This document shows, piece by piece, positions 23,760 through 42,913 of a stretch of 64,000 bases of DNA (position 1 is the stretch's first letter; each line of letters starts with the position of its first letter). The translations under genes were made by a program, and so were the position numbers. Source of the stretch: Luteibacter flocculans (GTDB taxonomy: Bacteria > Pseudomonadota > Gammaproteobacteria > Xanthomonadales > Rhodanobacteraceae); contig NZ_CP063231.1 in assembly GCF_023612255.1 (NCBI RefSeq), forward strand, positions 1,160,001 through 1,224,000, in the 5' to 3' direction. Under the pieces are notes generated by a model. The model was given only the letters and a program-made list of their open reading frames with translations, did no database searches and had not been told where the DNA came from.

Positions 23760-23786
23760 TAAAGTTTCCGCGTCACCTGCCGATTA
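23760..23786 (+). promoter_or_regulatory. Sigma-28 (FliA) promoter for cdiB-cdiA
   Basis: TAAAGTTT (23760-23767), an 11-base spacer, and GCCGATTA (23779-23786). The -35 is identical to the E. coli sigma-28 consensus; the -10 differs at one base. It points toward cdiB, with an expected transcript start near 23793 and a leader of about 75 bases. The same element type at 48539 precedes the chemotaxis operon. Confidence 0.8.
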
Positions 23787-23869
23787 GGGGCACTTGAAGA
23801 GCCGGGCCGCGGCACCCGAGAGTGTTCCCGCGCGCCCTTGAACCAGGACGGTTAGGAGTACCAGGACTA

Positions 23870-25561
23870 ATGAGGGTTACAGGGGAGAGCCGTTGGCGCA
23901 CAACGGTCTGCGCGCTCGCGTCGCTGCTTGCATTAGGTGTCGGCGGCGCGGCGATGGCGCAGCAGAGCACGCTCGACAAGCAGGAACAGTTGCGTCGCGC
24001 TCAGCAGCTTGATGAGAAGGAGGAGGCGCGCCGTGACGCGCCCTTCCAGCCCGGACAACCCGCACCGGCCGAGCGGCTCGATGCGCCGTTGCCGAAGGAC
24101 ACCCCTTGCTTTCCGCTGCAGAGCCTTCGCCTCGAAGGCGCCCGCGTGGCGGATTTCGCCTGGGCGCAGCGCTATCTCGATCGCTTCGTCGGCCAGTGCG
24201 TGGGCCGGAACGGGCTGGAAGCCTTGCAGCGCCGTCTGTCCAACCTGGTGATCGCGCGCGGCTTCGTCACCACCCGCGTGGGCGTGCCGGCGCAGGACAT
24301 TTCCAACGGTCAACTGCGCATGCTGCTGGTGCCCGGCATCCTGCGCCGTATCCGCTTCGCCGCCGGCTCGCCGGAACTCGACTGGCGTACGGCCTTCCCG
24401 ATCCGCGAAGGCGATCTGCTCAATCTCCATGCGATCGAGCAGGGGCTCGAGCAGCTCAAGCGCGTGCCGTCGCAAGACGTGACGATGGACATCGCGCCCG
24501 CCGAGAAAGTGGGCGAGTCCGATGTGGTGCTGACCGTTCACACCACGCGTCGTTGGCACGTGGTGGTGGATACGAGCGACGCTGGCCTCAAGGGGACGGG
24601 GCGCAACCAGGGCAACCTCAACGTCTCGTACGACAACCCGCTCGGGCTCAACGACCTGTTCTCGATCGGCGCGGGCCACGCCTTGTTCACGCACGCTGAC
24701 GGTGGCAGCACGTTCAGCGAGAACGCGACATACAGCATCCCCTGGGGCTGGTGGACCTTCAGCGGGTCGATCTCCACCTACCGCTACCGGCAGTGGATCG
24801 AAGGTTTCCAGAGTCGATTCCGTTCCACCGGCACGTCCACGTCGAGCGACATCACCGTGCAGCGTCTGTTGACCCGCGGCACGTCGAGCAAGACTTCGCT
24901 GGAAATGCGGCTGGCCGGACGCAGCGCGCACAGCTACATCCAGGGCGTGGAAGTCGGCATCCAGCGCCAACGTGTCGCCAGTGCGGAGCTGGCCCTGGTG
25001 CATCGCCACTACATCGGTCAGGCGCAGCTCGACGCGCGCCTGGGCTACCAGCGCGGCACGCCATGGTTCGGCAGCCAGTGGAACGGTTACGACCCATCCA
25101 TTGGATTTCCGACCAATCGCTACGGGCTGACCACGCTCGATCTGTCGCTGAGCCAGCCTTTGAAGCTGGGTACGCACCAGGCGATCTGGGACAGCAGCCT
25201 GCGCGTGCAGCGCTCCACCGACCATCTTCCCGCCGCCGAACTCATCACGATCGGCGGGCGCTACTCGGTGCGCGGCTATGACGGCGAGCAGACGCTCGCT
25301 GGCGAACGCGGCGCCTACCTGCGCAACACGCTCACGTTGCCGCTGGGCGTGTTGGCGCCTTACCTCGGCGTGGACGTCGGTCGCGTCTCCGGACCATCCA
25401 CGCAGGCAGGGCATCGCCAGTTGACCGGCGGCGTCATCGGCTTGCGTGGCAGCTACAGCGGCTTGAGCTGGGATCTCTTTGCGGGGCGGCGGATCCATGC
25501 GCCGCGCGGCTTCGACACCGCACACCCGACCACGGGCTTCCAGTTGATCTACCAGTACTGA
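23870..25561 (+). CDS. cdiB: Two-partner secretion outer-membrane transporter CdiB
   Basis: 563 residues, ShlB/FhaC/HecB family. ATG 23870 opens a signal peptide (MRVTGESRWRTTVCALASLL... cleaved near AMA). An N-terminal plug/linker, two POTRA domains (about 75-225; CFPLQSLRLEGARV, GFVTTRVGVPAQDISNGQLRMLLVPG) and a 16-strand beta-barrel (about 240-563) follow. The loop-6 motif essential for secretion is intact as GGRYSVRGYDGEQ. The protein ends with aromatic FQLIYQY, a typical BAM signal. It exports CdiA encoded 46 bases downstream. A perfect-match sigma-28 -35 lies upstream. Confidence 0.94.
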   Translation: MRVTGESRWRTTVCALASLLALGVGGAAMAQQSTLDKQEQLRRAQQLDEKEEARRDAPFQPGQPAPAERLDAPLPKDTPCFPLQSLRLEGARVADFAWAQRYLDRFVGQCVGRNGLEALQRRLSNLVIARGFVTTRVGVPAQDISNGQLRMLLVPGILRRIRFAAGSPELDWRTAFPIREGDLLNLHAIEQGLEQLKRVPSQDVTMDIAPAEKVGESDVVLTVHTTRRWHVVVDTSDAGLKGTGRNQGNLNVSYDNPLGLNDLFSIGAGHALFTHADGGSTFSENATYSIPWGWWTFSGSISTYRYRQWIEGFQSRFRSTGTSTSSDITVQRLLTRGTSSKTSLEMRLAGRSAHSYIQGVEVGIQRQRVASAELALVHRHYIGQAQLDARLGYQRGTPWFGSQWNGYDPSIGFPTNRYGLTTLDLSLSQPLKLGTHQAIWDSSLRVQRSTDHLPAAELITIGGRYSVRGYDGEQTLAGERGAYLRNTLTLPLGVLAPYLGVDVGRVSGPSTQAGHRQLTGGVIGLRGSYSGLSWDLFAGRRIHAPRGFDTAHPTTGFQLIYQY

Positions 25562-25607: not shown

Positions 25608-28600
25608 ATGACGATCAAGGCAACGATGGGCCACCGGTACGGTGCGGTAGCGATCTCGACAGTGCGCTCGCTGGCCCTTGCGGTCGCGCTCGCGACGCTG
25701 GGCATTCCCGTGGTGTCGTGGGCACAGCAGGTGCCGGACGCGGCGGCGGGAGCGCATCGCCCGACGATGGATTCGGCGGCCAATGGCGTGCCGGTGGTCG
25801 ATATCGTCGCGCCGAACGCGGAGGGCGTATCGCACAACAAATACCAGCGCTTCGACGTCGACCAGCGCGGCGTGATCCTCAACAACAGCGCCAACATCGT
25901 GCGTACCCAGCTCGGCGGCTATGTCGCCGGCAACGACAACCTCAAGGGTGGCGAAGCGTCGCTGATCCTCAACGAGGTGACGTCTGCGTTGCCGAGCAGC
26001 CTGCGCGGCTACATCGAGGTGGGCGGCAAGGCTGCGCCGGTCGTGATCGCCAACCCCTATGGCATCACCTGCGACGGTTGCGGCGTCATCAACAGCCAGC
26101 GCTTCACGCTGACAACGGGCACGCCCGTCTTTGGTGGCAGCGGCAGCCTGGACGCCTTCCACGTTACCGGCGGCAGCATCGCCATCGGCAGCGGCGGCCT
26201 CGACGGTTCAGTCGCGGATCGCACCGATCTGATCGCGCGCGCCGTGCAGTTGAACGGTCAGCTGTGGGCGAAGGATCTGTCCGTCGTCGCGGGTAGCAAT
26301 GACGTCAATTACGCCGATGCCGGTGTGCGCGTGAACGCTACGGACGCTGCCCACCCGGCGGTCGCGATCGACGTGGCCGCACTCGGTGGTATGTACGCGG
26401 AGAAGATCCGTCTTGTCGGCACGGAAGCAGGTGTCGGCGTGGTCAGCAGCGGCGCGATCGCTGCGCAGGCCGGTGACCTGACGCTGAGCAACGCCGGTGA
26501 AGTGCGTTTGGGCGGCACGACCGTGGCGCTCGGCAATGCCTCGCTCGATGCCAGCGGTCCGGTGACCGTCGACGGCACGTTCGGCACGCAGAATGGCGCG
26601 GCGTCCCTGACCAGCGGCAGCACACTCACCGTTCCCGGCCGCGTGATTGCGGGCGGTTCGCTCACGGTGAATGCCGCGGGCGACGTGGTCTCGTCCGGCC
26701 GGTTTAGTGCGGGAGGGAATCTTGCGGTCTATGCCGCAGGCGCCGTGCGCAATGCAGGACTCATCTACTCCGATCAGGCGTTCGACCTGCGTGCGAATGC
26801 GCTGCACAACGAAGGCACGATCTACGGGCTTGGCGGCGGCTCGATTCTCGCCAACGGTCTCTTCGATGCCACGGCGGCGAGCACGCTGCATGCTGGCGGC
26901 GCGTTGGCGATTGACGCGGGTGGCGTCGCCACGAACGGCATCGTGGATGCAGGCGGTGCATTGACGCTGTCCAGCCGTAGCGATGCCAACTTGGCGGGTG
27001 CGGTACAGGGCGCCGGCAGCGTCGCCGTACGCGCGACGAACCAATTGAACAACGGCGCGACGATCGTCTCGGGCGGTCGCCTCGATCTGCAGGCCGCCCG
27101 GGTCAGCAACCTCGCTTCGGGCATCGTGTCCTCGGGCAGCGATCTGGTGGTGAACGCGGCAGGCGACGCCTTCAACCAGGGCACGCTCTACGCCGCCGGT
27201 GGCGTGGTGGTCAATGCAGCGTCGCTCACACAAGCGGCAGCGGCTCAGCTCCATGGCGTCGCCAGTGCGCAGGTGACGTTGGCCGGGAACCTGGTCAATA
27301 GCGGCACGCTCGTCGGTGGCGGTGGGCTTGCGGTGAACGCGCGCTCCATCGCCAGCGATGGCGAGTTGGGCACGCAGCAGGGCGATGCGGCGCTCGTTAG
27401 CGGCTCGGATATCACCCTCACCGGCACGACGGTAGTCGACGGCAGCTTGAGCCTGCGGGCGCCGGGCACCGTCACGCAGCAGGGCCAGCTCACGACCGCG
27501 AACCTCGACGCCGAGGTCGGTTCGCTCGCAAACAACGGCGAAACATATGCGCGCGGCGATGCACGACTGCATGCCTCGCACGACCTATCCAACACGGGTT
27601 CGTTGTATGCCGACGGGCAGCTCACGCTCGGTGCGGACGGCACGCTGACCAACAGCGGCACGCTTCACGCAGGCACGGAACTCGCGCTCCACGCCGCGTC
27701 GATCGACAGCTCCAAGCAGATCGACGCGACCCGCGACGTCACCCTCGACGCGCAGACGATGCGTCTTGCTGGCAACGTGCAGGGCGGTCGCGATGTGGCG
27801 TTGACCGTGGCGGGTGGCGTAGATAACGCGGCAGCCGTCGTTGCGGGGCGTGACGTTACCGTACAGGCAGGCTCGCTGACGAACAGCGGTGCGATCTCGG
27901 CGACACATGACCTCGCCCTCGATGTTCAGGGCGACGTCGACAACGCCGGTCAGCTGTACGCGGGTCACGGACTCGACATCAGCGCCCATGCACTGACCGT
28001 CGGCACTGCTGGGGCGGTCAGTGCCGTGGATACCGCGACGCTGACACTTCAGGACGCGCTCCGCAATGCCGGCAGTGTGGTGGGTGTGCAGTCGCTGGCC
28101 GTCGATGCGCAGAGTATCGATTCCACCGGCTCGGTGGGCAGCAGCATGGGCAGCGCGGCGCTGACGACGCGCGGTGATCTTCACCTTGGCGGCGTGGCGT
28201 CAGCTGCAAGCGCGTTCTCCGCTCATGCAGCGGGCAACGTACTTCTCGACGGTACGCTCACGGGCACGTCGTTGGATCTGGCTGCACAATCGATGACGCT
28301 CGCTGGCGCGATCCATGCCACCGGCGACGCCGTACTCGACGCTGCGCAGAGCATCGCCCTCGGTGGCGATGCCTATGCCGATGGTGCGCTGACGGTTCAT
28401 GCGGCCAGCATCGACCAGTCCGGTACGACGCACGCCGGTGGCGACCTTGCACTGAAGGCGGCGAGCATCGTCACGCACGGTACGCTCGACGCCGGCAACG
28501 ATCTGCTGTTGACCGTCGACGCCGCGTCGCTGGCAGGTCGCCTGCAGGCAGCGCGCGATGTGCATGTCCAGGCGAGCGGCACGATGACGCAGGCCGCGAC

Positions 28601-31600
28601 CGTGGTTGCGGCACGCGATGTCACGCTGGGTACGGCGCACTTCGATGGCGCCAAGGAGGCCGCGGTCAGCGCGGGGCGCAACCTCACGCTCACCGCATCG
28701 CAGGACGTCGTCAATGCGGGTGTGCTCTATGCGGGCAATCTGCTCGCATTGAACGCCGCCAGCTTTACTCAGACGAGCGACGGACAGGTTCATGCGGCCG
28801 ATCATGTATCGCTGGATGTGTCGGGTGCGCTCGACAGCGCAGGCGCCATCATCGGTGGCAACGGTCTCGCGATCAATGCGGGTAGCCTGAGCAGCACGGC
28901 GCAGCTGGGCAGCACGGCCGGCGACGTGTCGATCGCGACGACACTGGGCGATCTCTCGCTGGTGGGTACCACGGTCTCGGCAGGTCGACTGGATGCGACA
29001 TCCGCAGCTGCGTTTGCTCAGTCGGGTGCGCTGAGTACTGCCGCCGCGACACTGACCGCCGCCACGGACATGACCCTGGCCGGCGACGTGTCGGCCAACG
29101 GCGCGGTGGGGTTGAACGCGGGGCGCGACCTTCACAACACCGGCAGCGTCTACACGTCCGGCACGTTGAGCCTGCAGTCGACGGGCAATCTCGATAATCG
29201 CGGCAGCCTGGCGTCGGAGCAGGGCCTTACCGTCGATGCGGGCGCGTTGACGCAGGCCACGAACGGCGCCTTGCAGACGAACGGCAATCTGGCCGTCACG
29301 GCCGGCAGTATCGACAGCAAGGGCACGCTGGCGAGCGCACATGACGTCTCGGTGGCCGCGCAGGACGACGTCAGCCTGTCCGGAACCACGCAGGCCGGCG
29401 GTGCGCTGGGCATCGCCACGACCGGTGCGGTGAACAACGCCGGCAAACTGCTGGCCTCGACCTCGCTGGCGGTAACGGCGGCGAACATTAGCAACACCGG
29501 TGCACTGTCGACCGACGGCACGCTCGACCTCCACGCCACCGATGCGCTGGACAACCAAGGCACCGCTTACGCGGGCCGCAAGATCACTCTCGGAGCGAAC
29601 GGCCTCACGCAGGGCGCCTCGGCCGAACTCACGGGCGCGGACGATATCGCCATCGACGTGGTCGGTGCGGTGAACAACGCCGGCAAGATCGTCGCCGCGA
29701 AATCGCTCGACGTGAAGGGCGGCAGCGTATCCAGCACCGGCACGCTCGGCACGCAGCAGGGCGACCTGGATCTTCAGGCGCGCCGGGGCGATCTCGTGCT
29801 GGGCGGCACGGTCGTGTCGGCAGCGGCATTGAATGGATCGGCCTCAGGCGCGATCCGCCAGAGCGGCCAGTTGTCCGCCAACGCGCTGGGCTTGCATGCC
29901 GACGGTGACCTCAATGCGCAGGGCGACATCAGCGCGCTCACGGCATCCCTCACCAGCGGCGCCACGCTGACGCAGAACGGCACACTGTCCGCGAACACGA
30001 TCACGCTCGATGGCGCCGCTGTGAGCAACGGCGGCAAGACATTGTCGTCGGGCGATCTCACCGTGCATGGCGGCACGGTCGACGCCTCCGGTGTACTGGC
30101 GGCAGGCGTGAAGGCCGACGGTACGCTCGACAGCGTCGGCGACCTTCGCGTGTCCGCCGATGGCGCGTTGACCGCGCACGGCAGCCTGCTTGCCGGCCAC
30201 ATGCTCGACACGAGGGCGAATGCGCTCGACCTGTCGTATGGCACGCAGCGGGCCGGGACCGATGCCACGTTCGTGGCGCGCGCAGGCAACATCGACCATA
30301 CGGCCGGCGATCTCGCCGTCGGCGGCGCGTTGACCGCGCAGGCCTCCGGAACGCTGCTGAATCGCGGTGTGGATGGTCGCGCTGCGCGGATGCAGGCAAA
30401 CACACTGCTGCTCAGCGCCGCGTCGATCGACAATGGCCACGGCCAGTTGCTGCAAACGGGCAACGCGGCGTGGGCGCTGACCACCGGCACGCTGGACAAC
30501 ACCGGCGGCACGATCGCCACGAACGGCAACGATCTGACCGTGCATGGCACGCGCGTCGTCAATCGCGGCGGCGGCATTCAACTGGCCGGCACGGGGCTGC
30601 TCGACGTCAAGGCCGACCAGGACATCGACAACACCCAGGGCACCCTCGCAGGCAATGGCGCGACCCGCGTCACCGCGACGACCAACCTGCTCAATGATGG
30701 CGGTCTGATCAACGCGCATGGCGCCACTACGATCGCCGCCGCATCGCTCAGCAATACGGCGAACGGCGCGATATCGGGCAGCGCGCTTGGCGTGACCGTC
30801 GGCAACGGAGTGAACAACGCGGGTGGCCTGCTCCAGGCCACGGCAGGCGACCTCACGCTGTCTGCGGCCGGTCTGTCCAATGCCGGCGGCACGATCCAGT
30901 CCGCACCTGCTGCCGTGACGCTTGGCGTCAACGGTACGCTCGACAACGCGACAGGCACCATCGCGGCCGGCACGCTGGCCAAGCTCACGGCGGCCCAGGT
31001 GAACAACGCCGGTACCGTCACGGCCGGCCAGCTCAGTGTGCAGGCAACCAACACGATCGCCAACGTCGGCGGTCGTCTGCAGAGCCGCGGCGCGCTCGAC
31101 CTTCGCGGCACCAACGGCATCAACAACAACGCGGGCAGCATCGAGGCGAACGGTGCCACCACGCTGACCTCGGCATCCGTCTCCAACGTCGGCGGGCGCA
31201 TCGCGAACGCCAGCGGCGTATCGACCCAGGTCACCTCAGGTGGCGGCATCGACAACCGTGGCGGCACGCTCGGCGGCCAGGGCGACGTCACCCTTTCCGG
31301 TACGTCGATCTCGAATGCCCAGGGCGGCACGCTCGTGGCGGCGGGAAGCATGACGCTCGGCACCGGCCAGTTGGACAACAGCAACGGCACGGTCTACGCC
31401 GGCAACACCTTCAACTTCGTCAATGCCGGCGCATCGGCAATCAACGCGGGCGGCAAGATCACCGCGGGGCAGCAGCTCAACCTCACGCTGGCGAGCCTGA
31501 ACAACAGTGGCGGCACCGTGCAGGCCGGCATCGATGGTGTGGGTGGTGTCGGCAACGTCATGCTCGATATCCGCAGCCTCGTCGGCCAGGGCACCATCGT

Positions 31601-34600
31601 CGCCAACAACACGCTCGGCATGCACCTGGTGGGCGACTACGTCCAGGCAGCAGGATCGAGCATCAAGGCCAGCGGAGGCTTCAGCCTCGCGGTGGACGGG
31701 CAGTTCGTCAACAACGGCAGCATCCAGGCCGTGAACGGGCTGACGATCAGCGCGGCGAACATCACCAACAACGCGGGTGCGCTGCTCAACTCCGCCAATA
31801 CGCAGCTCAACACGGGCGGCACGATCACCAACGCCGGCAGCATCCAGGGCAATACGGTCGGCATGACGGCCGGTGCGGTGAACAACACCGGCACGATCAT
31901 GGGCGGCAACGTCACGATCCAGGCCGGTAGCGTGGTCAACGGTGCCGACTTCGGCCAGGCGACCGGCAACGCGGCTTATCAGAGCGGGACGATCGCCGCG
32001 ACGGGCAGCGTGGACATCTACACGAGCTACCTGCTCAACCGCGACGCGCAGATCTTCAGCCTCGGCAACATCAACGTCGCGGGGGCGCGCCGTAACGGCC
32101 AGGGTTTGTTCGATACACGCGCGGGTCAGATCGACAATATCTCCGGTTCGATCCAGGCGCAGGGGAGCATCCTGCTCGCTGCGAACCAGATCAATAACGT
32201 ACGCCGTGTGTTGAACACGACCGACCACGTGCTGACGGCCGAGGAATCGGCCGCTTCGCAGCCCTTGCCGGTTTCGGACTATAAGCACTCGGTCAACAAG
32301 GTGCAGGAGTACGAGACCTACACCGAGTACCACACCATCCAAGAGACCGTGGTCAATGCGGCCAGCGCGCAGTCGCAGATCCTGGCCGGCGGAAACATCT
32401 CGCTCTACGGTTCGGTGACGAACAGCACCTCCACCATCGCGGCCAACGGCTTTCTCGCCGTGAACCAGCAGGGCGCCGGTGGCGGGACCGGCATGGTGCT
32501 CGGTAACGAAAACGTCGCCAACCAGTCGCTCGCAGCGGGCCGCACCATTCAACAGGTGGCCGTGACCCATCACATTCGTTGCGGATGGGATCCCAGCCTG
32601 TGCGACCCGGAAGACGAAAAGGAGTACTACACCTACCGACCCAACACGGATCCCTCGACCTACCTGCACGACAACTACACCGCACTCGGCGCGGTGATGA
32701 CGGGCTCCGGTGGTGTCGCCATCAGCGGTGTGAACGTCTCCAACGGCGGTGTCACGCCGGATGGCCGTTCGGTTGGTAACACGCGCCTGGACCCCAATGC
32801 GCAGGCCATCGGCCTCGCATCGTTGAACAAGGGCAGCGCGCAGGGTGCGGCGGGTCTGCCGGTCGGTGCGCAAGTCGATCCGGCAACCGGCCACGCGCCG
32901 CAGGTGCTTGGTGGCGCAGGACAACCGTTGGCCGGCGTGACGCTTCCCACGGGGGGTATCTACAGTGTTCGCGGTGCGAGCGGCAGTGACAGCGTAGCCG
33001 TCGATGGGCCGTCCGCAGGCGGCCAGATTACCGCCGCCAGTGCCGGCGAACGCACGGCCGTCGGCAATGTCGGCGCGGATCAGCTCTCCGCACTGGCGGG
33101 CGGTGTCTCGGCGCGCAACGTCGGCCTGATGGGTAATGCGTACCTCACCGCATTGCTGGGCCATCCGCCTAGCGGCAACTACCTCATCGAAACCAATTCG
33201 CGCTTCGTCGACTACAGCCAGTTCATCAGCAGCGACTACCTGCTGGACAAGCTAGGCGTCGACCCGGCACGCACGATGATGCGTCTCGGCGACGGCTTCT
33301 ATGAGCAGCAGCTGGTGACCCAGCAGGTGACGCAGCTCACTGGCCGCACCTATCTCTCCGACTATTCGAGCGGGTTGCAGGAATACCAGTCGCTGATGAA
33401 CAACGCCACGCACGTGGCGCAGGCGATGAACCTGAGCGTGGGCGTGGCACTGACGGCGGAACAGGTCAGCGCACTCACCCAGGACATGGTCTGGATGGTG
33501 CAGCAGAACGTGGACGGCCACGAGGTGCTGGTTCCGGTGGTCTACCTGGCGAACGGCACCCTGGCCCTCACGGCGCAAGGCGCGGTGATCGCGGGCAAGG
33601 ACGTGAGCATCGAGGCGTCGGGCACTCTGTCCAACGGTGGCTTGATCCGCGGCGAAAACAGCACGCTGCTCACCGCGCAGGATCTGCTCAACAGCGGTCG
33701 CATTTCCAGCGGCGGCCTCACGGCGATCAGCGCTACCGGGAATGTAACCAACCTCAACGGTCGCATCGACGGTGCTGGCGTCAGCGTGATCGCGGGAGGC
33801 GATATTCGCTCCGAGAACGTGGGCGGACTGATCGGTCGCGGCATGGATGGTGCAAGCATCACCGCCACGCAAGGCCTGCAGATCAGCGCAGGACATAACC
33901 TTTCGCTCGATCACACGGCGGTTACCGCAGGCGGCGACGCGCTGCTGACGGCGGGCCATGACCTGAGCTTGGCCGGGCAGGGCGTGTCGGCGGGCGGAAG
34001 CCTGGCGCTGGCCGCGGGGCACGATCTGTCGATCGCGTCGAGCGTGACCACGACCCACCCGTACGCGTGGAGCAACACGCTCACCGGCACCACGGCCAAC
34101 GGGCTCACGCTCAGTGCCGGAAAGGACCTGTCGCTGGTCGCCGGCAACGACATGACCCTGTCCGCCACCACCTTGAAGGCGGGCGGCAACGCCGCCTTGC
34201 AGGCAGGCAACGACCTCACCCTGGGGGCGGTGCAGAGCGGCACGCGCTGGTCGACCCAGACGACCGCGGGCGCCATCGACGCAGGCGGTTCGTTGTCGCT
34301 GCAAGCGGGGCACGACCTCGCCGTGCAAGCCGGCACGCTGAAAGCCGGCGGCGACATGGCCCTGCTGGCAGGCCACGACCTGTCGCTGACTGCGACCAGC
34401 AACGGCACGTCGACCAAGGTCACCCACGATGTGACCACCCTCGACGCAGGCGGCAACCTTGCGGTGGCCGCGGGAAACAACGCGCTGCTCGAAGGCACGC
34501 AGATCAAGGCAGGCGGCACGGCGGCGCTCCAGGCCGGCAACGATCTCGACCTCACCACGGTAACCGACAGCACGACGAAGACGGCGAGCTGGAAGGAGGG

Positions 34601-37600
34601 GAAGAAGCGCGTTACGGAGACGACGACGGATGAGACCGTTCGCGGCGTGACGATCGACGCCGGTACGGGGGTGCAGATCGCCGCCGGTCACGACGCCACC
34701 CTGGATGCGACGACCGTCGCCACCAAGACCGGCGACATCACCTTGGCCGCGGGACACGACCTCACGCTTGGCGCTGAGGACGAAACGCATACCGTCGTCA
34801 CGGACACCAAGAAAAAGAAAAGCGGCCTCTTCAGCAGCAAGACGACCACGACCCACGACACCAGCGAGCAGACGTTGGCCGTCGGCACGTCGCTCAGTGG
34901 CGACAACATCCACATGGTGGCCGGAAACGACCTCACTGCCATGGGTGCGACGGTCCAGGCAACCGGCGGCATCGCCGTGGCGGCAGGCCACGACGTGAAC
35001 CTGCTAGCGACGACGGACACCTATAACGAGACCCACGACAAGACCGTCAAGAAGTCTGGCTTCACGCTCAACCGCGGCGGCGGCATCGTCCAGGCAGGCA
35101 AGAAGACGGTGACGAACGACGACACCGCACAGCATGTCGCCAATGGCACCCTGCTCAGTGGCGATTCGATCTCTGTCGCTGCAGGCCACGACGTGCTCGG
35201 CGAAGGCGCGAAGATCGCCGGTACACACGATGTAGTGGTGGCAGCGGGTAACAACCTGACCCTCACCACGGCCGTCGACATCTACGACGACAGCCATAGC
35301 AAGACGGTCACCAAGACGGGCTACTCCAAGAGCGGGATGAACGAGCTTTACGGGCAGGCGAAGGACAGCCGCTCGGATAGCTCGCACCAGGTGACCCACA
35401 CGGGAAGCGTCGTCGGTTCCACCGATGGACAGGTAACGTTGACGGCGGGTGGTGACCTCCACCTGACGGGCACGGACGTCATCAGTAAGACCAGCACGAC
35501 GATCGTCGGCAAGAACGTCACGATCGACGCTGGGCTGGACACGCTGGATACGACGCAGTCGCAGAAGCATAGCGAGGGGGGCATCACCGGAGGATTGGGC
35601 GGAGCCGCCTACGAGTTCGCCATGGGCGCACGGGACTCAGTGAGGCAGGCCAGCAGCAGCGACGATGACCGCTTGAAGGCGCTCTATGCCGTGAAGGCCG
35701 CCTATCAGGTGCATGACGCCCTTGCAGCAACAGGCAACTTCGGCAGTGTGACCGATGCTCAGAGTGCGGCGGGAGCGGCAGGCATCAACATCCAGGTCGG
35801 GATTGGTGGAAGCAGCGCGAGCAGCAAGACCACGACGCATGACAGTACGTCCTATGGCGGTCACATCACTAGCGGTGGCAACGTCACCATCGGCGCGACG
35901 GGCGGCGACCTGACCATCATCGGCGGCGAGGTTACGGGCAAGAACGTTGCCCTTGCCGCGACCAACGACATCAATCTCCTTAGCCAGTCGGAAGAGCACA
36001 GCCTCAAGAACGACTCGAAGAACTCGGCCGGTAGCATTGGCGTCAGCTTCGGCTCGGACGGCTTTGGCATCTACGCATCCGCCAGCGTCGGTAGTGGCAA
36101 GGCTCACGGCAACGGAAGCACGCACGCCGAAACAACGATCAACGCGGACGATAAGCTTACGATCGTCAGCGGCCACGACACCACCATTGAAGGCGCCCAG
36201 CTGAAGGGCAATCAGGTAGCGGCCGACATCGGCAACAACCTGACCATCCGCAGCGAGCAGGACACCGACGACTACGCCAGCAAGACCATGCAGGCTGGCG
36301 GCAAGCTCATGGTCGGCATCACCCAGAGCGGGTTTGTCAGCGGTAGCGCCTACTACGCTGCAAGCAAGATCGACAGCCACTACACCAGCGTCAACGAAGT
36401 CAGCGGCATCAAGGCGGGTGATGGTGGCTTTCAGATCGACGTTGGTGGCACGACCCACCTAGTGGGTGGACAGATCGCCAGCGCGGCCGATGCCTCCAAG
36501 AACGTGCTCAGCACGGGCGATCTGGTCTGGGAGGATCTGCACAATGAGTCGAAGTACAACGCCAGCCAAGTCAGCTTTAGTGGCGGCAGCACGATGTCAA
36601 GCAATGTTGCCGGAGCCATTGGCGCGGCGATATCCATGGCTACGCCGCACAAAGGGAACAGCAGCAGCGACACTCATTCGGGCATTGCTGAGGGCACCAT
36701 CATTGTTCGGAATGATCCGGGCAAGGAGCTCAGCAGCTTAGATCGAAATCCGACGCTTGATGACGAAGCGTTGAAGAATAGTTACGACCCCAAAAAGGTG
36801 TCCGAGCAGCAGGAGTTGGCTACGCAGGCTGGCTATGTCGGAATGCGCACCGTCGGAGCTATTGCGGAGTACATGCAGTACAACGCAACGACGGACGAGC
36901 AGCGTGCGGCGTGGGCGGACGGGAGTCGAAACAAGGTAATTCTTCACGGTGTCGTCGGCGCGGCGATGGCGTCGCTTGGAGGCGGCAATGCGCTGCAGGG
37001 TGCTCTCGGAGCGGGGGGCGCCGAAGCCGCCTCGAAGGCCATGCAAGATTATTTGGCTACGACGGACGCGACGCCAGAAGAGAAGAAGACCTATATGGAG
37101 CTCGGCGCCGCCGCCATCGGCGGCGCCATCGGCGGCTCGCGTGGTGCCGCTGCCGCCCTGGACGGTGAACTGAACAATCGCCAGCTTCACCCCGACGAAA
37201 CCGCGTGGATCAAACAGCACGCGACGGACTTCGCGCGGCAGGAGTGCGGCGGATGCGATCCGTCGCAAGAGCAAGTCGAAACTGCCACGGCACGGCTCGG
37301 TCAGCAGGCATCCAAGGACGTCGACTTCATCTGGAAGAGTGTTCTTGGCTCGGGGGACGATTCCGCAGCGCAGGCATACCTTGCGTCGACTGATGCAACG
37401 TTTATGAACGATCTCGGCAAGCAGCAGACGATGTTCACTGCTGAACGAGGGCAATTCTTTGCCCCAGCGCAAAACGCGCCTGACGCTGACCTGGACTTTA
37501 TTGGGAAATATGTTCGCCCAGGGGCCACTCGCGACCTCACCACCGGGATGGCTCAGGAGTCGGAGAAATTCGCTTCCACCATTGGAGGGGCAATCAAGGA

Positions 37601-38447
37601 TGATCCCTTTGGAGTGGGTAAGAACGTAGTGATCGGCTTGGGTTCCGCAATTGGCGGTGTGTTTGCGCACCCGATAGATACCTACTACGGACTGAAGGAC
37701 GGATTCGTTTCGGGCGCTCAGAATATGGGCGAGGGCGCTGCCGTAAGTTTTAACCAGTCCCTTCAAGATCGGATGCAGCTGATCTATGGGCAGGACGTAA
37801 GCGGTGCGATCCAGACGGTGACGGCATTGCAAGTTACCGCCGCCCTGGGAAATGCTGTTGGTGCTGGCAAGATTGTTGGTGCTGGCGTGAAGGTCGCGGG
37901 TAAGGCTGTCGAGGCCACAGCAGAGAAGGTTGCGGTGTCTCTTGAGAAGGAGGCAGCGAAGTCGGCAGTCGACGACGCGTCGAAGATATTGGCGTCGACA
38001 GGGGACGTCGCGCCGTCAGCCGAGGCATCCGGAAGTATTGGTGCGACCAAGGGCGCGTTAAAGGGCGAGCCGGAGGTGCCTCCGAAGAATGCATCGCTGG
38101 ACCAAGTGCGTGCAATCACAAGGCAGAACGAAGCGGCTGAGCTGCTCGCTGATTCGGGCTTTGATGTCGAGCAACTCCCAAATACGCGCAAGAGCGTAAG
38201 TCCTGATCTCAAGATCAACGGAATCGAGGCGGACGTGGCGTCTCCCACAACGTCCAGTCCGTACTCGGTGCGTCTGACTATTCAGAACAAAGTTGAAAGG
38301 CAAGCGGACACTGTCGTGATCAATCTCGCCGACTCACCGCTAGTGCCGGAGGATATTCAGAAGGTTGTAGAGTCCAATCCTGTAGAGGGGCTGAAGCGTG
38401 TTTATGTTATAAAAAACGGAAAGATCACGGTCATTGAGGGTTCCTGA
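25608..38447 (+). CDS. cdiA: Contact-dependent inhibition effector CdiA (giant hemagglutinin-repeat toxin)
   Basis: 4279 residues. An extended signal peptide (about 1-40, cleaved near SWA) leads to the TPS secretion domain (about 60-300; YQRFDVDQRGVILNNS, NPYGITCDGCGVIN). FHA-1 repeats follow (about 300-2180; repeated units like GTLxNSGxI). A non-repetitive central region (about 2200-2670; LGDGFYEQQLVTQQVTQLTG, LTAEQVSALTQDMVWMVQQNV) matches the receptor/periplasmic-transfer region of FHA/CdiA proteins. FHA-2 repeats run about 2680-3500, then a pretoxin segment (NNRQLHPDE near 3852, in the position of VENN/ELYN motifs). The last ~120 residues (from about 4160; RQNEAAELLADSGFDVEQ, SPDLKINGIEADV, RQADTVVINLADSPL) resemble the CdiA_C tRNase-type PD-(D/E)xK nuclease. 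GC content falls in the toxin end. The stop overlaps the immunity gene (TGATG). Confidence 0.93.
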   Translation: MTIKATMGHRYGAVAISTVRSLALAVALATLGIPVVSWAQQVPDAAAGAHRPTMDSAANGVPVVDIVAPNAEGVSHNKYQRFDVDQRGVILNNSANIVRTQLGGYVAGNDNLKGGEASLILNEVTSALPSSLRGYIEVGGKAAPVVIANPYGITCDGCGVINSQRFTLTTGTPVFGGSGSLDAFHVTGGSIAIGSGGLDGSVADRTDLIARAVQLNGQLWAKDLSVVAGSNDVNYADAGVRVNATDAAHPAVAIDVAALGGMYAEKIRLVGTEAGVGVVSSGAIAAQAGDLTLSNAGEVRLGGTTVALGNASLDASGPVTVDGTFGTQNGAASLTSGSTLTVPGRVIAGGSLTVNAAGDVVSSGRFSAGGNLAVYAAGAVRNAGLIYSDQAFDLRANALHNEGTIYGLGGGSILANGLFDATAASTLHAGGALAIDAGGVATNGIVDAGGALTLSSRSDANLAGAVQGAGSVAVRATNQLNNGATIVSGGRLDLQAARVSNLASGIVSSGSDLVVNAAGDAFNQGTLYAAGGVVVNAASLTQAAAAQLHGVASAQVTLAGNLVNSGTLVGGGGLAVNARSIASDGELGTQQGDAALVSGSDITLTGTTVVDGSLSLRAPGTVTQQGQLTTANLDAEVGSLANNGETYARGDARLHASHDLSNTGSLYADGQLTLGADGTLTNSGTLHAGTELALHAASIDSSKQIDATRDVTLDAQTMRLAGNVQGGRDVALTVAGGVDNAAAVVAGRDVTVQAGSLTNSGAISATHDLALDVQGDVDNAGQLYAGHGLDISAHALTVGTAGAVSAVDTATLTLQDALRNAGSVVGVQSLAVDAQSIDSTGSVGSSMGSAALTTRGDLHLGGVASAASAFSAHAAGNVLLDGTLTGTSLDLAAQSMTLAGAIHATGDAVLDAAQSIALGGDAYADGALTVHAASIDQSGTTHAGGDLALKAASIVTHGTLDAGNDLLLTVDAASLAGRLQAARDVHVQASGTMTQAATVVAARDVTLGTAHFDGAKEAAVSAGRNLTLTASQDVVNAGVLYAGNLLALNAASFTQTSDGQVHAADHVSLDVSGALDSAGAIIGGNGLAINAGSLSSTAQLGSTAGDVSIATTLGDLSLVGTTVSAGRLDATSAAAFAQSGALSTAAATLTAATDMTLAGDVSANGAVGLNAGRDLHNTGSVYTSGTLSLQSTGNLDNRGSLASEQGLTVDAGALTQATNGALQTNGNLAVTAGSIDSKGTLASAHDVSVAAQDDVSLSGTTQAGGALGIATTGAVNNAGKLLASTSLAVTAANISNTGALSTDGTLDLHATDALDNQGTAYAGRKITLGANGLTQGASAELTGADDIAIDVVGAVNNAGKIVAAKSLDVKGGSVSSTGTLGTQQGDLDLQARRGDLVLGGTVVSAAALNGSASGAIRQSGQLSANALGLHADGDLNAQGDISALTASLTSGATLTQNGTLSANTITLDGAAVSNGGKTLSSGDLTVHGGTVDASGVLAAGVKADGTLDSVGDLRVSADGALTAHGSLLAGHMLDTRANALDLSYGTQRAGTDATFVARAGNIDHTAGDLAVGGALTAQASGTLLNRGVDGRAARMQANTLLLSAASIDNGHGQLLQTGNAAWALTTGTLDNTGGTIATNGNDLTVHGTRVVNRGGGIQLAGTGLLDVKADQDIDNTQGTLAGNGATRVTATTNLLNDGGLINAHGATTIAAASLSNTANGAISGSALGVTVGNGVNNAGGLLQATAGDLTLSAAGLSNAGGTIQSAPAAVTLGVNGTLDNATGTIAAGTLAKLTAAQVNNAGTVTAGQLSVQATNTIANVGGRLQSRGALDLRGTNGINNNAGSIEANGATTLTSASVSNVGGRIANASGVSTQVTSGGGIDNRGGTLGGQGDVTLSGTSISNAQGGTLVAAGSMTLGTGQLDNSNGTVYAGNTFNFVNAGASAINAGGKITAGQQLNLTLASLNNSGGTVQAGIDGVGGVGNVMLDIRSLVGQGTIVANNTLGMHLVGDYVQAAGSSIKASGGFSLAVDGQFVNNGSIQAVNGLTISAANITNNAGALLNSANTQLNTGGTITNAGSIQGNTVGMTAGAVNNTGTIMGGNVTIQAGSVVNGADFGQATGNAAYQSGTIAATGSVDIYTSYLLNRDAQIFSLGNINVAGARRNGQGLFDTRAGQIDNISGSIQAQGSILLAANQINNVRRVLNTTDHVLTAEESAASQPLPVSDYKHSVNKVQEYETYTEYHTIQETVVNAASAQSQILAGGNISLYGSVTNSTSTIAANGFLAVNQQGAGGGTGMVLGNENVANQSLAAGRTIQQVAVTHHIRCGWDPSLCDPEDEKEYYTYRPNTDPSTYLHDNYTALGAVMTGSGGVAISGVNVSNGGVTPDGRSVGNTRLDPNAQAIGLASLNKGSAQGAAGLPVGAQVDPATGHAPQVLGGAGQPLAGVTLPTGGIYSVRGASGSDSVAVDGPSAGGQITAASAGERTAVGNVGADQLSALAGGVSARNVGLMGNAYLTALLGHPPSGNYLIETNSRFVDYSQFISSDYLLDKLGVDPARTMMRLGDGFYEQQLVTQQVTQLTGRTYLSDYSSGLQEYQSLMNNATHVAQAMNLSVGVALTAEQVSALTQDMVWMVQQNVDGHEVLVPVVYLANGTLALTAQGAVIAGKDVSIEASGTLSNGGLIRGENSTLLTAQDLLNSGRISSGGLTAISATGNVTNLNGRIDGAGVSVIAGGDIRSENVGGLIGRGMDGASITATQGLQISAGHNLSLDHTAVTAGGDALLTAGHDLSLAGQGVSAGGSLALAAGHDLSIASSVTTTHPYAWSNTLTGTTANGLTLSAGKDLSLVAGNDMTLSATTLKAGGNAALQAGNDLTLGAVQSGTRWSTQTTAGAIDAGGSLSLQAGHDLAVQAGTLKAGGDMALLAGHDLSLTATSNGTSTKVTHDVTTLDAGGNLAVAAGNNALLEGTQIKAGGTAALQAGNDLDLTTVTDSTTKTASWKEGKKRVTETTTDETVRGVTIDAGTGVQIAAGHDATLDATTVATKTGDITLAAGHDLTLGAEDETHTVVTDTKKKKSGLFSSKTTTTHDTSEQTLAVGTSLSGDNIHMVAGNDLTAMGATVQATGGIAVAAGHDVNLLATTDTYNETHDKTVKKSGFTLNRGGGIVQAGKKTVTNDDTAQHVANGTLLSGDSISVAAGHDVLGEGAKIAGTHDVVVAAGNNLTLTTAVDIYDDSHSKTVTKTGYSKSGMNELYGQAKDSRSDSSHQVTHTGSVVGSTDGQVTLTAGGDLHLTGTDVISKTSTTIVGKNVTIDAGLDTLDTTQSQKHSEGGITGGLGGAAYEFAMGARDSVRQASSSDDDRLKALYAVKAAYQVHDALAATGNFGSVTDAQSAAGAAGINIQVGIGGSSASSKTTTHDSTSYGGHITSGGNVTIGATGGDLTIIGGEVTGKNVALAATNDINLLSQSEEHSLKNDSKNSAGSIGVSFGSDGFGIYASASVGSGKAHGNGSTHAETTINADDKLTIVSGHDTTIEGAQLKGNQVAADIGNNLTIRSEQDTDDYASKTMQAGGKLMVGITQSGFVSGSAYYAASKIDSHYTSVNEVSGIKAGDGGFQIDVGGTTHLVGGQIASAADASKNVLSTGDLVWEDLHNESKYNASQVSFSGGSTMSSNVAGAIGAAISMATPHKGNSSSDTHSGIAEGTIIVRNDPGKELSSLDRNPTLDDEALKNSYDPKKVSEQQELATQAGYVGMRTVGAIAEYMQYNATTDEQRAAWADGSRNKVILHGVVGAAMASLGGGNALQGALGAGGAEAASKAMQDYLATTDATPEEKKTYMELGAAAIGGAIGGSRGAAAALDGELNNRQLHPDETAWIKQHATDFARQECGGCDPSQEQVETATARLGQQASKDVDFIWKSVLGSGDDSAAQAYLASTDATFMNDLGKQQTMFTAERGQFFAPAQNAPDADLDFIGKYVRPGATRDLTTGMAQESEKFASTIGGAIKDDPFGVGKNVVIGLGSAIGGVFAHPIDTYYGLKDGFVSGAQNMGEGAAVSFNQSLQDRMQLIYGQDVSGAIQTVTALQVTAALGNAVGAGKIVGAGVKVAGKAVEATAEKVAVSLEKEAAKSAVDDASKILASTGDVAPSAEASGSIGATKGALKGEPEVPPKNASLDQVRAITRQNEAAELLADSGFDVEQLPNTRKSVSPDLKINGIEADVASPTTSSPYSVRLTIQNKVERQADTVVINLADSPLVPEDIQKVVESNPVEGLKRVYVIKNGKITVIEGS

Positions 38448-38830
38448 TGTCTCTTGATTTCTCACTTGAGATCGAAGAGGGGGTCGATATCCCTTCACTA
38501 TTTCGGTTGGGCGAATCTCTTGGTGGTGAGATCCGCGATAGACACTTATGGTTCCCACAATCGTGGATGACATTATTCATCAGGGACAACCGTGGAAATC
38601 CTGCACCGGGAGTAGAAGATCCGGCGCTTAGTTGGCGGGTTGGCGCACGTTGCGTTGCTGTTATGCATCCGCAGAACTATGACGCTTGCTGGTATGAACT
38701 TGAACGATTCATAAGGTCACTCGCCGGACGTTTCAGCCAGCGATTCGTCCTATCGTTCGAGTATTCCTCCATCTACGCGATACGAGATGAGAGTGGGCTG
38801 CACTTTCTGAAGTCGGGTCTTGCCTCATGA
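38447..38830 (+). CDS. cdiI: Cognate CDI immunity protein
   Basis: 127 residues with no signal peptide and no membrane segment, so cytoplasmic. ATG 38447 shares its first base with the cdiA stop (TGATG), the coupling expected of an immunity gene. GC content is lower than in the chromosome core, as in the toxin end. It should bind and neutralise the CdiA_C-type nuclease domain. I do not recognise its family; the assignment rests on position, size and coupling. Confidence 0.8.
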   Translation: MSLDFSLEIEEGVDIPSLFRLGESLGGEIRDRHLWFPQSWMTLFIRDNRGNPAPGVEDPALSWRVGARCVAVMHPQNYDACWYELERFIRSLAGRFSQRFVLSFEYSSIYAIRDESGLHFLKSGLAS

Positions 38831-39190: not shown

Positions 39191-42100
39191 CGCAGTGCCG
39201 GCGGAGGCAATCTCGCGGTGGCCGCCGGAAACAACGCGCTGCTCGAAGGCACGCAGATCAAGGCAGGCGGCACGGCGGCGCTCCAGGCCGGCAACGATCT
39301 CGACCTCACCACGGTAACCGACAGCACGACGAAGACGGCGAGCTGGAAGGAGGGGAAGAAGCGCGTTACGGAGACGACGACGGATGAGACCGTTCGCGGC
39401 GTGACGATCGACGCCGGTACGGGGGTGCAGATCGCCGCCGGTCACGACGCCACCCTGGATGCGACGACCGTCGCCACCAAGACCGGCGACATCACCTTGG
39501 CCGCGGGACACGACCTCACGCTTGGCGCTGAGGACGAAACGCATACCGTCGTCACGGACACCAAGAAAAAGAAAAGCGGCCTCTTCAGCAGCAAGACGAC
39601 CACGACCCACGACACCAGCGAGCAGACGTTGGCCGTCGGCACGTCGCTCAGTGGCGACAACATCCACATGGTGGCCGGAAACGACCTCACTGCCATGGGT
39701 GCGACGGTCCAGGCAACCGGCGGCATCGCCGTGGCGGCAGGCCACGACGTGAACCTGCTAGCGACGACGGACACCTATAACGAGACCCACGACAAGACCG
39801 TCAAGAAGTCTGGCTTCACGCTCAACCGCGGCGGCGGCATCGTCCAGGCAGGCAAGAAGACGGTGACGAACGACGACACCGCACAGCATGTCGCCAATGG
39901 CACCCTGCTCAGTGGCGATTCGATCTCTGTCGCTGCAGGCCACGACGTGCTCGGCGAAGGCGCGAAGATCGCCGGTACACACGATGTAGTGGTGGCAGCG
40001 GGTAACAACCTGACCCTCACCACGGCCGTCGACATCTACGACGACAGCCATAGCAAGACGGTCACCAAGACGGGCTACTCCAAGAGCGGGATGAACGAGC
40101 TTTACGGGCAGGCGAAGGACAGCCGCTCGGATAGCTCGCACCAGGTGACCCACACGGGAAGCGTCGTCGGTTCCACCGATGGACAGGTGACGTTGACGGC
40201 GGGTGGTGACCTCCACCTGACGGGCACGGACGTCATCAGCAAGACCGGCACGACGATCGTCGGCAAGAACGTCACGATCGACGCTGGGCTGGACACGCTG
40301 GATACGACGCAGTCGCAGAAGCATAGCGAGGGGGGCATCACCGGAGGATTGGGCGGTGGTCTATACGACCTGGCGATGGACGTTCGTAACTCAGCCACCC
40401 GCGCAAACGACACCGACGACGACCGTTTGAAAGCGCTGTATGCCGCCAAGGCAGCATACGAAATCAAGGATGGTGTTCAGGCGATTCAGGGTATCAGTGG
40501 CGTGACCGATGCCCAGAGTGCGGCGGGCGCGACGGGCATCAACATTCAGGTCGGGATTGGTGGAAGCAGCGCAAGCAGCAAGACAACGACACACGACAGC
40601 ACCTCCTTCGGCGGTCATATCACCAGTGGCGGGAACGTCACCATTGGCGCAACCGGTGGCGACCTGACCATCATCGGCGGCGAGGTGACCGGCAAGAACG
40701 TTGCCCTAGCTGCGACGCACGACATCAACCTGCTCAGCCAGTCCGAGGAACACAGCCTAAAGAACGACTCGAAGAATTCCGCGGGGAGTATTGGCGTCAG
40801 CTTCGGCTCCGATGGTTTCGGCATCTATGCATCGGCTAGCGTCGGCAGTGGCAAGGCCCACGGCAACGGCAGCACTCATGCCGAAACCACGATCAACGCC
40901 GACGACAAGCTGACCATCGTCAGTGGTAACGACACGACCATCGAAGGCGCCCAGCTGAAGGGCAATCAGGTTGTCGCCGACATCGGCAACAACCTGACCA
41001 TCCGCAGCGAGCAGGACACCGACGACTACGCCAGCAAGACCATGCAGGCTGGCGACAAGCTCATGGTCGGTATTACCCAGAGTGGATTTGTCAGCGGTAG
41101 TGCGTACTACGCCGCAAGCAAGGTCGACAGCCACTACACCAGCGTCAACGAAGTCAGCGGCATCAAGGCCGGCGACGGCGGCTTCCAGATCGACGTTGGC
41201 GGCACGACTCATCTGGTGGGTGGGCAGATCGCCAGCTCGACCGATGCCTCCAAGAACGTGCTCATCACGGGCGATCTGGTCTGGGAGGATCTGCACAACG
41301 AGTCGAAGTACAACGCCAGCCAGGTGAGCATTAGCGGGGGCAGCACTGTATCGAGCAATGTCGTGGGCGCGATCGGTGCGGCGATTTCCATGGCAATGCC
41401 ACAGCGTGGAAACAGCAGCAGCGAAACCCGATCAGGGGTGGCTAATGGGACGATCACAATACGCAACGATCCAGCCAAGGATCTGACTGGACTCGACCGA
41501 AATCCAACTCTTGACAACGCCTCGCTGAAGAATTCCTTCGACCCCGAGATGATTGCCGACAGGCAAGAGCTTTCCGAGGTCGCGGCGCACGTAGGCTTTC
41601 GTGCTGCTGGTGATATCGCCAACAAGATGAAATGGGCCGAAGGAAGCCCGCAACGCGCTGCGCTTCACGGCGCGGTGGCCGCCGCTGTGGCATCTTTGGG
41701 TGGCGGGGACGTTGGCAAGGCAGTCACGGGTGCGGTAGCCAACCAGGTCGTCATGACCACGATGTCTGACTACCTTCTAAGTCACGGTTATGAGGCCAAG
41801 GATCCCGAATACAGCGCCCTTATGCAGGCAGGGAGCGCTGCGGTTGGTGCAGTTGTGGGTGGAGGTTCTGGCGCGGTGGCAGCTCTGGATGCGACCAAGT
41901 ACAACCATCTCACACATAAGCAGATTGATGATCTAAACCAAGCGCTGGGGAGCTGTGCGACAGAACAATGTCGCTCGGATGCGATCAGTTCGGCTAAACA
42001 GCAATCTCAGTTGAATGACGTGGCCTTGGCCATTGTTTGCAATGCCGGAGCATCAACGGCTTGCTACCAGGGTCTCGGCGCGCTGGAATCGTATTACGAC

Positions 42101-42913
42101 AGCCCCGTCGTGCCGCTCGGCTTGCAGGGCGATCAAGTACGTGATCGGCAGTTGGAGCAATCTCAATACTTTGGAGATATAGGATTCTTCGGTGGCCTTG
42201 CTGCATCGTACTACGCCAACACCCCTCAGGAGGGTGAGCTAGGCAGGTTCCTGTCCGGGGCCGGCGCCGCCTACGGGAACAGAATTCTCCCGTTTATCGG
42301 TAACGACGAGGGGCAAAATCGCGACAACCCATTTATTCCCGCGCAATCAGGGGGTGCGGCACCGCAATTTACGGATGGAATGTCCGCGAGTGCAGCACAG
42401 GGGGTGTGGCTTGGTCGGGTCGCAGGTGATGCCACCTGGGCGCTCGTTGGAAACGAAGGAAATGCCGGTTCAAGTGCTAGACCGTCAAACACCGTTCCAA
42501 ACACAGAAGTGCCATTTAGCCCCATAGTTGACGGTGGTGGACTGCAAGCTCACGAAGATGCCGGTGGACATCTCTTGAAGAAACACGTTGGGCAGTCGGA
42601 GCAGGACCTTGTGGATCGGTTGGCTGCAGAACCAAACATCAGCGGCTCTTCGTCCTTCTATAATCGGGCTGCGGCAGAAAATGCCGTTTCGCAAACCATT
42701 GACGCGAACCAGAAGGCAGTGACAAATTGGTTGAATAATGGATCTTCAGGTCGCTTGCGTCTTGACTATTCCTTGTCTGATCCCGTCGGCATTTCCGTCT
42801 CTCGCGGTGCAACGAGCGCGCTCGACGTCAATTCCGTTCGTATGATTTTGGTGAGAGATGCATCCATGCCAACCGGGTACAAAATCCTTACTGGGTTTCC
42901 GACAAAACCATGA
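39191..42913 (+). pseudogene. Orphan cdiA 3' module with RNase A-like toxin
   Basis: The open frame runs from 39191 (after TGA 39188-39190) to 42913. It has no ATG near its start and lacks the signal peptide, TPS domain and FHA-1 region. From about 39200 to 40356 it is nearly identical to cdiA 34446-35602 (constant offset 4754, same reading frame). It stays similar to about 41500 and then diverges. A pretoxin segment with KYNHLTHKQ near 41900 leads to a different toxin at 42541-42913 (LQAHEDAGGHLLKKHVGQSE, SSSFYNRAAAENAV, VRMILVRDASMPTGYKI). The HE...GGH...KKHVG pattern is that of the bacterial RNase A-like CdiA-CT family. It is silent as it stands, but recombination with cdiA would activate it. 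Known CDI loci carry similar orphan cdiA-CT/cdiI pairs. Confidence 0.88.

What the first reader, a model, noticed from the sequence alone, without database searches (positions are those of the whole stretch)
23760..23786. CDI operon appears to be driven by a flagellar sigma-28 promoter
TAAAGTTT-N11-GCCGATTA upstream of cdiB matches the FliA consensus at 15 of 16 positions with exact spacing and correct orientation. The chemotaxis operon in the same window carries the same element (48539-48565), an internal control that this organism uses it. If functional, contact-dependent killing would be expressed with swimming motility rather than with sessile growth.
Basis: partly seen in the sequence, partly recalled or inferred. 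Interest (0 to 1): 0.82.

Follow-up and report, generated by a model that had tools for sequence, protein, structure and literature searches.

The report
Flagellar promoter drives contact-killing operon
In Luteibacter bacteria the genes for a contact-dependent killing system carry a conserved switch of the kind used for flagella, which suggests that cells make this weapon as part of the swimming programme.

Summary
TAAAGTTT-N11-GCCGATTA lies at 23760-23786, 83 bp before the cdiB ATG (23870), and matches the sigma-28 (FliA) consensus at 15 of 16 positions. It is one of seven sites within one mismatch in the 4.3-Mb genome; five others precede a che operon, FlgM, FliK, a chemoreceptor and a diguanylate cyclase.

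All 8 close cdiB orthologs found in 23 Luteibacter genomes, and the one in another genus of the family, keep a site of at least 13 of 16 with exact 11-bp spacing. Meanwhile the upstream DNA has diverged and the spacer varies. The 8 distant cdiB homologs of the same genus lack it. Across 125 upstream regions the count is 19 sense against 0 antisense. On a CdiB tree the site needs five changes, so it was probably gained or lost repeatedly.

The leader also has an ACCAGGACGGT element, identical in 7 of 7 aligned orthologs, that resembles a CsrA/RsmA hairpin. FliA control is therefore very likely. 'Killing while swimming' is only a guess; transcription in motile cells with translation released on landing also fits. 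No expression data were tested.

The parts
23760..23786 (+). FliA (sigma-28) promoter: -35 TAAAGTTT (23760-23767), 11-bp spacer, -10 GCCGATTA (23779-23786)
   Evidence: conserved in 8 of 8 close orthologs
23793..23793 (+). expected transcription start (7 nt after the -10), inferred from known FliA promoters (recalled), not mapped
   Evidence: inference
23793..23869 (+). 5' leader of about 77 nt, partly conserved in 7 of 8 orthologs
23841..23853 (+). AACC-AGGAC-GGTT, can form a hairpin with GGA in the loop, CsrA/RsmA-like; core ACCAGGACGGT identical in 7 of 7 aligned orthologs
   Evidence: csrA gene present; fold support weak
23854..23858 (+). AGGAG, probable ribosome-binding site and second GGA
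23870..25561 (+). cdiB (TpsB transporter: POTRA_2, POTRA_3, ShlB)
   Evidence: start
25608..38447 (+). cdiA, 4279 aa: TPS domain, haemagglutinin repeats, CdiA_C toxin tip
38447..38830 (+). probable cdiI (127 aa, no Pfam match; immunity role inferred from position)
39218..42913 (+). displaced cdiA C-terminal module (1231 aa) with haemagglutinin repeats and RNase A-type toxin
42910..43209 (+). its immunity gene (CdiI_2)
48539..48565 (+). FliA promoter of the che operon (internal control)

Best explanation
The cdiBAI operon is a class III gene of the flagellar cascade. After the hook is finished and FlgM is exported, free FliA directs RNA polymerase to 23760-23786 and transcribes cdiB, cdiA and cdiI from about 23793. 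The weapon is thus made in cells that have built a flagellum. Shown here: the site, its spacing, its conservation and its independence from neighbouring DNA. Inferred: that FliA binds and is needed, the start point, that the operon is read to cdiI, and the physiological timing.
For: The site has exact spacing and 15 of 16 matches. It is one of 7 genome-wide sites within 1 mismatch; five of the other six precede a STAS/che operon, FlgM, FliK, an MCP and a PAS-GGDEF gene. fliA is in 23 of 23 Luteibacter genomes. All 8 close cdiB orthologs have a site of 13-15 of 16 with exact N11; in 7 of 8 it ends 80-83 bp before a shared ATG. Seven of 8 -35 columns and 5 of 8 -10 columns are invariant, against 0 of 11 spacer, 0 of 38 upstream and 0 of 10 downstream columns. 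Of 3200 shuffled 300-bp regions 1 reached 13. In 125 homolog upstream regions 19 sense and 0 antisense reach 13. queA lies within 1.5 kb upstream in only 3 of 8. No sigma-70-like promoter was found at 23350-23950.
Against: No expression data. None of the 8 orthologs has a perfect GCCGATAA, and 3 of 8 have GCCGAA, so the promoter may be weak. The 8 orthologs are related species. In L040 the cdiB start is uncertain: the first in-frame ATG is 36 bp after the site and its N-terminus does not align. The sigma-70 scan is a consensus search and cannot rule out a second promoter. The 8 distant cdiB homologs in the genus and most homologs elsewhere lack the site, so it is not a general rule for CDI.
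Confidence: 0.88

Rival explanations
1. Two-key control: FliA makes the cdi message in motile cells, but CsrA/RsmA bound to the GGA hairpin and the ribosome-binding site holds back translation until CsrA is titrated, for example on surface contact. The killer protein then appears when swimmers land, not while they swim. This adds to the best explanation and does not exclude it.
For: ACCAGGACGGT is identical in 7 of 7 aligned orthologs and is followed by GGAG; mean column identity of the whole aligned leader is 79%. csrA is present. RsmA lowers mRNA of both P. aeruginosa PAO1 cdiA genes, and putative RsmA sites overlap their ribosome-binding sites (passages of PMC4725963).
Against: The eighth ortholog (L040) lacks the element. 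It has another predicted hairpin with GGA in the loop, but its cdiB start and frame there are uncertain, so this counts for nothing. RNAalifold gives a covariation term of +0.28 and only one pair of this hairpin with a change on both sides. 5 of 7 single folds are no better than shuffles, and in the window's own lowest-energy fold the hairpin does not form. GGA near a ribosome-binding site is common.
Confidence: 0.36
2. The site is a real FliA promoter, but CdiA serves mainly as a surface adhesin or kin-recognition factor of motile cells (for example along fungal hyphae), with killing secondary.
For: CdiA is a 4279-aa filamentous adhesin-like protein. The P. syringae cdiA and cdiB homologs are listed among genes with fitness differences in motility selections (passages of PMC11813219).
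Against: Toxin tips differ between orthologs (of seven Luteibacter tips given, CdiA_C in one, a peptidase C39-like domain in one, no Pfam match in five), as expected of a competition system. An RNase A-type toxin with its own CdiI_2 follows in the window.
Confidence: 0.2
3. Chance match, or an ancestral sequence without function.
For: A near-perfect match alone occurs a few times per genome: 7 sites within 1 mismatch against 2 for the reversed control pattern in the own genome.
Against: 8 of 8 conservation with unalignable upstream flanks and a variable spacer; 19 sense against 0 antisense in 125 regions.
Confidence: 0.03
4. A housekeeping or other promoter elsewhere drives most cdi transcription and FliA only adds a little in motile cells.
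For: The imperfect -10 in all 8 orthologs. [quoted passage not shown]
Against: No sigma-70-like site at 23350-23950. No conserved block upstream of the FliA site.
Confidence: 0.25

Closest known systems
Serratia marcescens ShlBA haemolysin (two-partner secretion) under FlhDC/FliA
   Same: A two-partner secretion operon tied to the flagellar cascade; [quoted passage not shown]
   Different: A haemolysin, not a CDI system; another bacterial group; there a partial dependence is reported, here a conserved sigma-28 site is seen and no mutant exists
Pseudomonas aeruginosa PAO1 CDI loci PA0041/PA2462
   Same: CDI operons; putative RsmA boxes in the leader overlapping the ribosome-binding site (passages of PMC4725963)
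   Different: Reported as lowered by RsmA, with mRNA raised 4.5- to 8-fold in static culture; no FliA promoter is described in the passages seen
Class III flagellar promoters (flgM, che, MCP genes) of the same genome
   Same: Same -35/-10 layout and spacing
   Different: the own che and flgM sites have GCCGATA; the 8 cdiB orthologs all deviate within the last three bases of the -10, as does the fliK-like gene's site (GCCGATT)
Xenorhabdus FliAZ regulon with haemolysin genes
   Same: Haemolysin genes in a FliA/FliZ regulon (seen only as a reference title in PMC5131962)
   Different: Not CDI; whether FliA acts directly was not read here

Membership tests
FliA (sigma-28) promoter | -35 close to TAAAGTTT and -10 close to GCCGATAA | tested here: met
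   15 of 16 in the window; 13-15 of 16 in 8 of 8 orthologs
FliA (sigma-28) promoter | 11-bp spacing, correct orientation and distance to a gene start | tested here: met
   exact N11 in 8 of 8; site ends 80-83 bp before ATG in 7 of 8, start uncertain in L040
FliA (sigma-28) promoter | organism has fliA and a flagellar regulon with the same element | tested here: met
FliA (sigma-28) promoter | transcription lost without FliA | not testable with these tools
   needs a mutant or RNA data
CDI (cdiBAI) two-partner system | CdiB with POTRA and ShlB/FhaC-type barrel | tested here: met
CDI (cdiBAI) two-partner system | very large CdiA with TPS domain, haemagglutinin repeats and variable C-terminal toxin | tested here: met
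CDI (cdiBAI) two-partner system | small immunity gene directly after cdiA | tested here: inconclusive
   127-aa ORF at 38447 without a Pfam match; CdiI_2 after the second module
CDI (cdiBAI) two-partner system | VENN motif before the toxin tip (E. coli class; other classes differ, passages of PMC4725963) | tested here: not met
   no VENN in CdiA or in the second module; not required of all CDI classes
CDI (cdiBAI) two-partner system | contact-dependent growth inhibition in an assay | not testable with these tools
   experiment needed
CsrA/RsmA-regulated leader | GGA in a hairpin loop plus GGA at the ribosome-binding site, conserved | tested here: inconclusive
   sequence conserved in 7 of 7 aligned orthologs; the fold is weakly supported

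The most novel reading that the evidence does not exclude
Contact-dependent inhibition is wired into the flagellar cascade as an 'arm while swimming, fire on landing' device: sigma-28 transcribes the operon after hook completion and CsrA/RsmA gates translation. The sigma-28 wiring has been gained more than once by different CdiB lineages in the order (Luteibacter with genus g13, genus g6, genus g38).
Probability: 0.3. Interest if true: 0.76.

Novelty: new variant of a known kind. Interest (0 to 1): 0.62.

Why it matters
In the one CDI-regulation paper whose passages I read, cdi mRNA rises in static culture (PMC4725963). A conserved sigma-28 promoter would put CDI under the opposite programme, where kin and rivals meet after dispersal. 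It gives a cheap, exact test (a fliA or flgM mutant, a -10 change) in a genus with fungus-associated members (PMC11165876, PMC9040847; passages), and one study reports that fungal hyphae raise contact-dependent killing in a way that depends on flagellar motility (passages of PMC12448445). It also offers a comparative set (clades with and without the site) for asking why a weapon's regulation changes.

Tried and rejected
Rejected: chance match. Rejected: the site as part of the queA neighbourhood; queA was found in the 1.5-kb upstream flank of only 3 of 8 orthologs. Not found: a sigma-70-like promoter or a terminator at 23350-23950. Not found: a known RNA family in the leader; three matches at 23390-24000, all far below the gathering scores.

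Errors made and corrected: (a) I read minus-strand loci from the genome search in the wrong orientation and scored two orthologs (L037, L039) as lacking the site. Searches showed that both have it; six distant homologs on the minus strand were re-read at the same time and still lack it. (b) One search counted 126 regions, one of them (L216) at a wrong place because its flank is cut; one search drops it and gives 125, with the same 19 against 0. (d) The first ORF listing left out minus-strand genes starting further downstream, which is why FliK was found only; for the seventh site (2044897) two ORFs starting 181 and 191 bp downstream have no Pfam match.

Results against a wide reading: most cdiB homologs lack the site. 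Of the 36 homologs fetched from the second family 2 reach 13. Of 12 distant homologs from a sample of 369 genomes of the class, 11 could be scored and none reaches 13. Eleven of the 43 matches in genus g38 were never scored (no locus). One antisense site of 15 of 16 lies upstream of L138, outside the 350-bp window. The 125 regions are not independent: four of the positives (L121, L157, L158, L159) share one identical site. The tree is of the quick kind, holds a selection of 80 proteins, leaves out the partial L047, and one row (L164) is cut short at its end.

Literature: ten searches showed no paper stating that FliA or sigma-28 drives a CDI operon. I saw listings with starts of abstracts (some lists were cut: 20 of 28, 10 of 20, 10 of 178, 10 of 24) and passages of seven papers; no whole paper. 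Subscription papers are mostly not held, so this is not proof of absence.

Full report
1. The observation. One search shows TAAAGTTT-CCGCGTCACCT-GCCGATTA at 23760-23786, 15 of 16 to the sigma-28 consensus (the consensus itself is recalled). One search found three sites in the window within 3 mismatches against a shuffle mean of 0.02. The che control at 48539-48565 is real: it lies 54 bp before a STAS gene that heads cheY-, cheA-, cheW-, MCP- and cheR-like genes.

2. Organism and operon. Five cdiB relatives at 82-88% identity lie in named Luteibacter records, whose contigs match in length those of the unnamed same-genus genomes G004, G005, G006, G013 and G015, so the window is Luteibacter by inference. 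cdiB (probable start ATG 23870) has POTRA_2, POTRA_3 and ShlB. cdiA (4279 aa) has a TPS domain, haemagglutinin repeats and a CdiA_C tip. A 127-aa ORF without a Pfam match follows, then a second module with an RNase A-type toxin and CdiI_2. In the orthologs the toxin tips differ.

3. The regulon. The own genome has 7 sites within 1 mismatch of TAAAGNTT-N11-GCCGATA (2 for the reversed pattern). Six precede the STAS/che operon, a FliK-like gene, a PAS-GGDEF gene, cdiB, an MCP and FlgM. The seventh (2044897) has no recognised gene; two ORFs starting 181 and 191 bp downstream have no Pfam match. The FliK-like site has the same GCCGATT as cdiB. Over 23 Luteibacter genomes my sums of the rows are 132 sites against 27 control sites. 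fliA is in 23 of 23.

4. Conservation. One search found cdiB matches in 15 of 23 Luteibacter genomes, 16 matches in all: 8 at 82-100% identity (the window's own included) and 8 at 45-52%. After correcting orientation, 8 of 8 of the first group have a site of 13 to 15 of 16 with exact N11, and 0 of 8 of the second reach 12. In 7 of 8 the site ends 80-83 bp before a shared ATG; in L040 the start is uncertain. Alignment shows the upstream DNA unalignable, CC-TAAAGTT and GCCGA invariant, and the spacer variable. One search gives invariant columns 7 of 8 (-35), 5 of 8 (-10), 0 of 11 (spacer), 0 of 38 (upstream, leaving out the two C next to the -35, which are both invariant) and 0 of 10 (downstream); 1 of 3200 shuffled 300-bp regions reached 13. 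queA was found in the 1.5-kb upstream flank in 3 of 8, so the site stays with the operon where its surroundings differ.

5. Wider survey. Family search: 50 of 233 genomes, 56 matches, all 56 scored. Order: 65 of 398 genomes; all 36 matches in the second family were fetched and scored. Genus g6: 11 of 20 genomes, 14 matches, all scored. Genus g38: 35 of 91 genomes, 43 matches, of which 30 were held as loci and 2 more had been fetched before; 11 were not scored. Class sample: 13 of 369 genomes, the window's own included. Sites of at least 13 were found in genus g13 (L049, 65% identity; the other cdiB there, L054, had only 70 bp upstream and gave none), in 4 of 14 in g6, and in g38 in four with one identical site (L157-L160; L160 is the locus of L121) plus L127 and L174. 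In one uniform tally of 125 regions of 350 bp (one of only 70 bp), 19 sense and 0 antisense reach 13; the antisense maximum is 11. A tree of 80 CdiB proteins, a selection of those found, needs at least 5 changes of the label: Luteibacter plus g13 9 of 9, a g6 clade 4 of 4 with the other 10 g6 rows without, a g38 clade 4 of 4, and two single rows (quick method). The g6 sites begin about 250-270 bp before the start, so a long leader or another start is possible there.

6. The leader. From the expected start (about 23793) to ATG are about 77 nt. ACCAGGACGGT is identical in 7 of 7 aligned orthologs and can pair as AACC-AGGAC-GGTT with GGA in the loop, directly before AGGAG in the window. The eighth, L040, lacks it. 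Such an arrangement is typical of CsrA/RsmA targets (recalled), csrA is present, and RsmA lowers P. aeruginosa cdiA mRNA (passages of PMC4725963). Against it: weak covariation, 5 of 7 folds no better than shuffles, and in the window's own lowest-energy fold the hairpin does not form.

7. Mechanism. Most likely FliA, freed by FlgM export, transcribes cdiBAI late in flagellar assembly. The imperfect -10 in all 8 orthologs suggests a weak or graded promoter. Whether killing happens while swimming, or is made ready then and released after landing, cannot be told from sequence.

8. Known or new. Flagellar control of a two-partner secretion haemolysin is known: Serratia shlA depends partially on FlhD and FliA (passages of PMC6687942). 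In P. syringae, cdiA/cdiB homologs are listed among genes with fitness differences in motility selections (passages of PMC11813219). I found no report of a sigma-28 promoter for CDI in ten searches of the held library. I call it a new variant of a known kind.

9. Context. In Luteibacter sp. 9143 fliA, flgM and other flagellar genes fall in coculture with a fungus, while T6SS genes rise; the text has no occurrence of 'hemagglutinin' or 'contact-dependent'. Hyphae raise contact-dependent killing by V. cholerae, and this depends on flagellar motility (passages of PMC12448445). Both make a motility-linked contact weapon plausible in this genus; neither shows it.

Noticed in passing
6746-6772: A weaker FliA-like site (TCAAGCTT-N11-GCCGATAG) stands 52 bp before a PAS-GGDEF diguanylate cyclase gene; it could link c-di-GMP to the motile state.
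   Followed up: partly
23420-23700: Repeated palindrome-rich stretches (CTGCTGGCGATGGGAAC..., CGCCGCTATAGCGGCTCCCAC) between queA and cdiB look like REP-type elements (read by eye).
   Followed up: no
39218-44774: A displaced cdiA C-terminal module with RNase A-type toxin and CdiI_2, followed by a transposase gene with integrase core (43941-44774, IS3-like by recall), suggests a toxin-module reservoir.
   Followed up: partly
L044, L045, L048 about 150 bp before the distant cdiB homologs: A shared TA(A/G)GGTTTCCCCTAC-N6-GTCGGGCA element in three Luteibacter cdiB genes that lack a FliA site; possibly another regulator's site.
   Followed up: no
L110 and L111, upstream of cdiB homologs of genus g58: A shared AAGTGATATCCATCACAT palindrome resembling a CRP/Clp site (family recalled) in the sister CdiB clade without a FliA site.
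   Followed up: no
L174, L179, L182-L185 (genus g38), about 160-220 bp before the start: A shared TA(A/T)AGAA(G/A)-N11-GCCGATA(A/C/G) element with a poor -35, maybe a decayed or variant sigma-28 site.
   Followed up: partly
L138, antisense to the cdiB homolog: A 15 of 16 FliA-like site in the upstream region pointing away from the cdiB homolog, presumably for another gene.
   Followed up: no
L040 (1300-1500): The N-terminus of this cdiB ortholog does not align and its likely signal-peptide start lies in another frame; the start, or the reading of the record, is uncertain there.
   Followed up: partly
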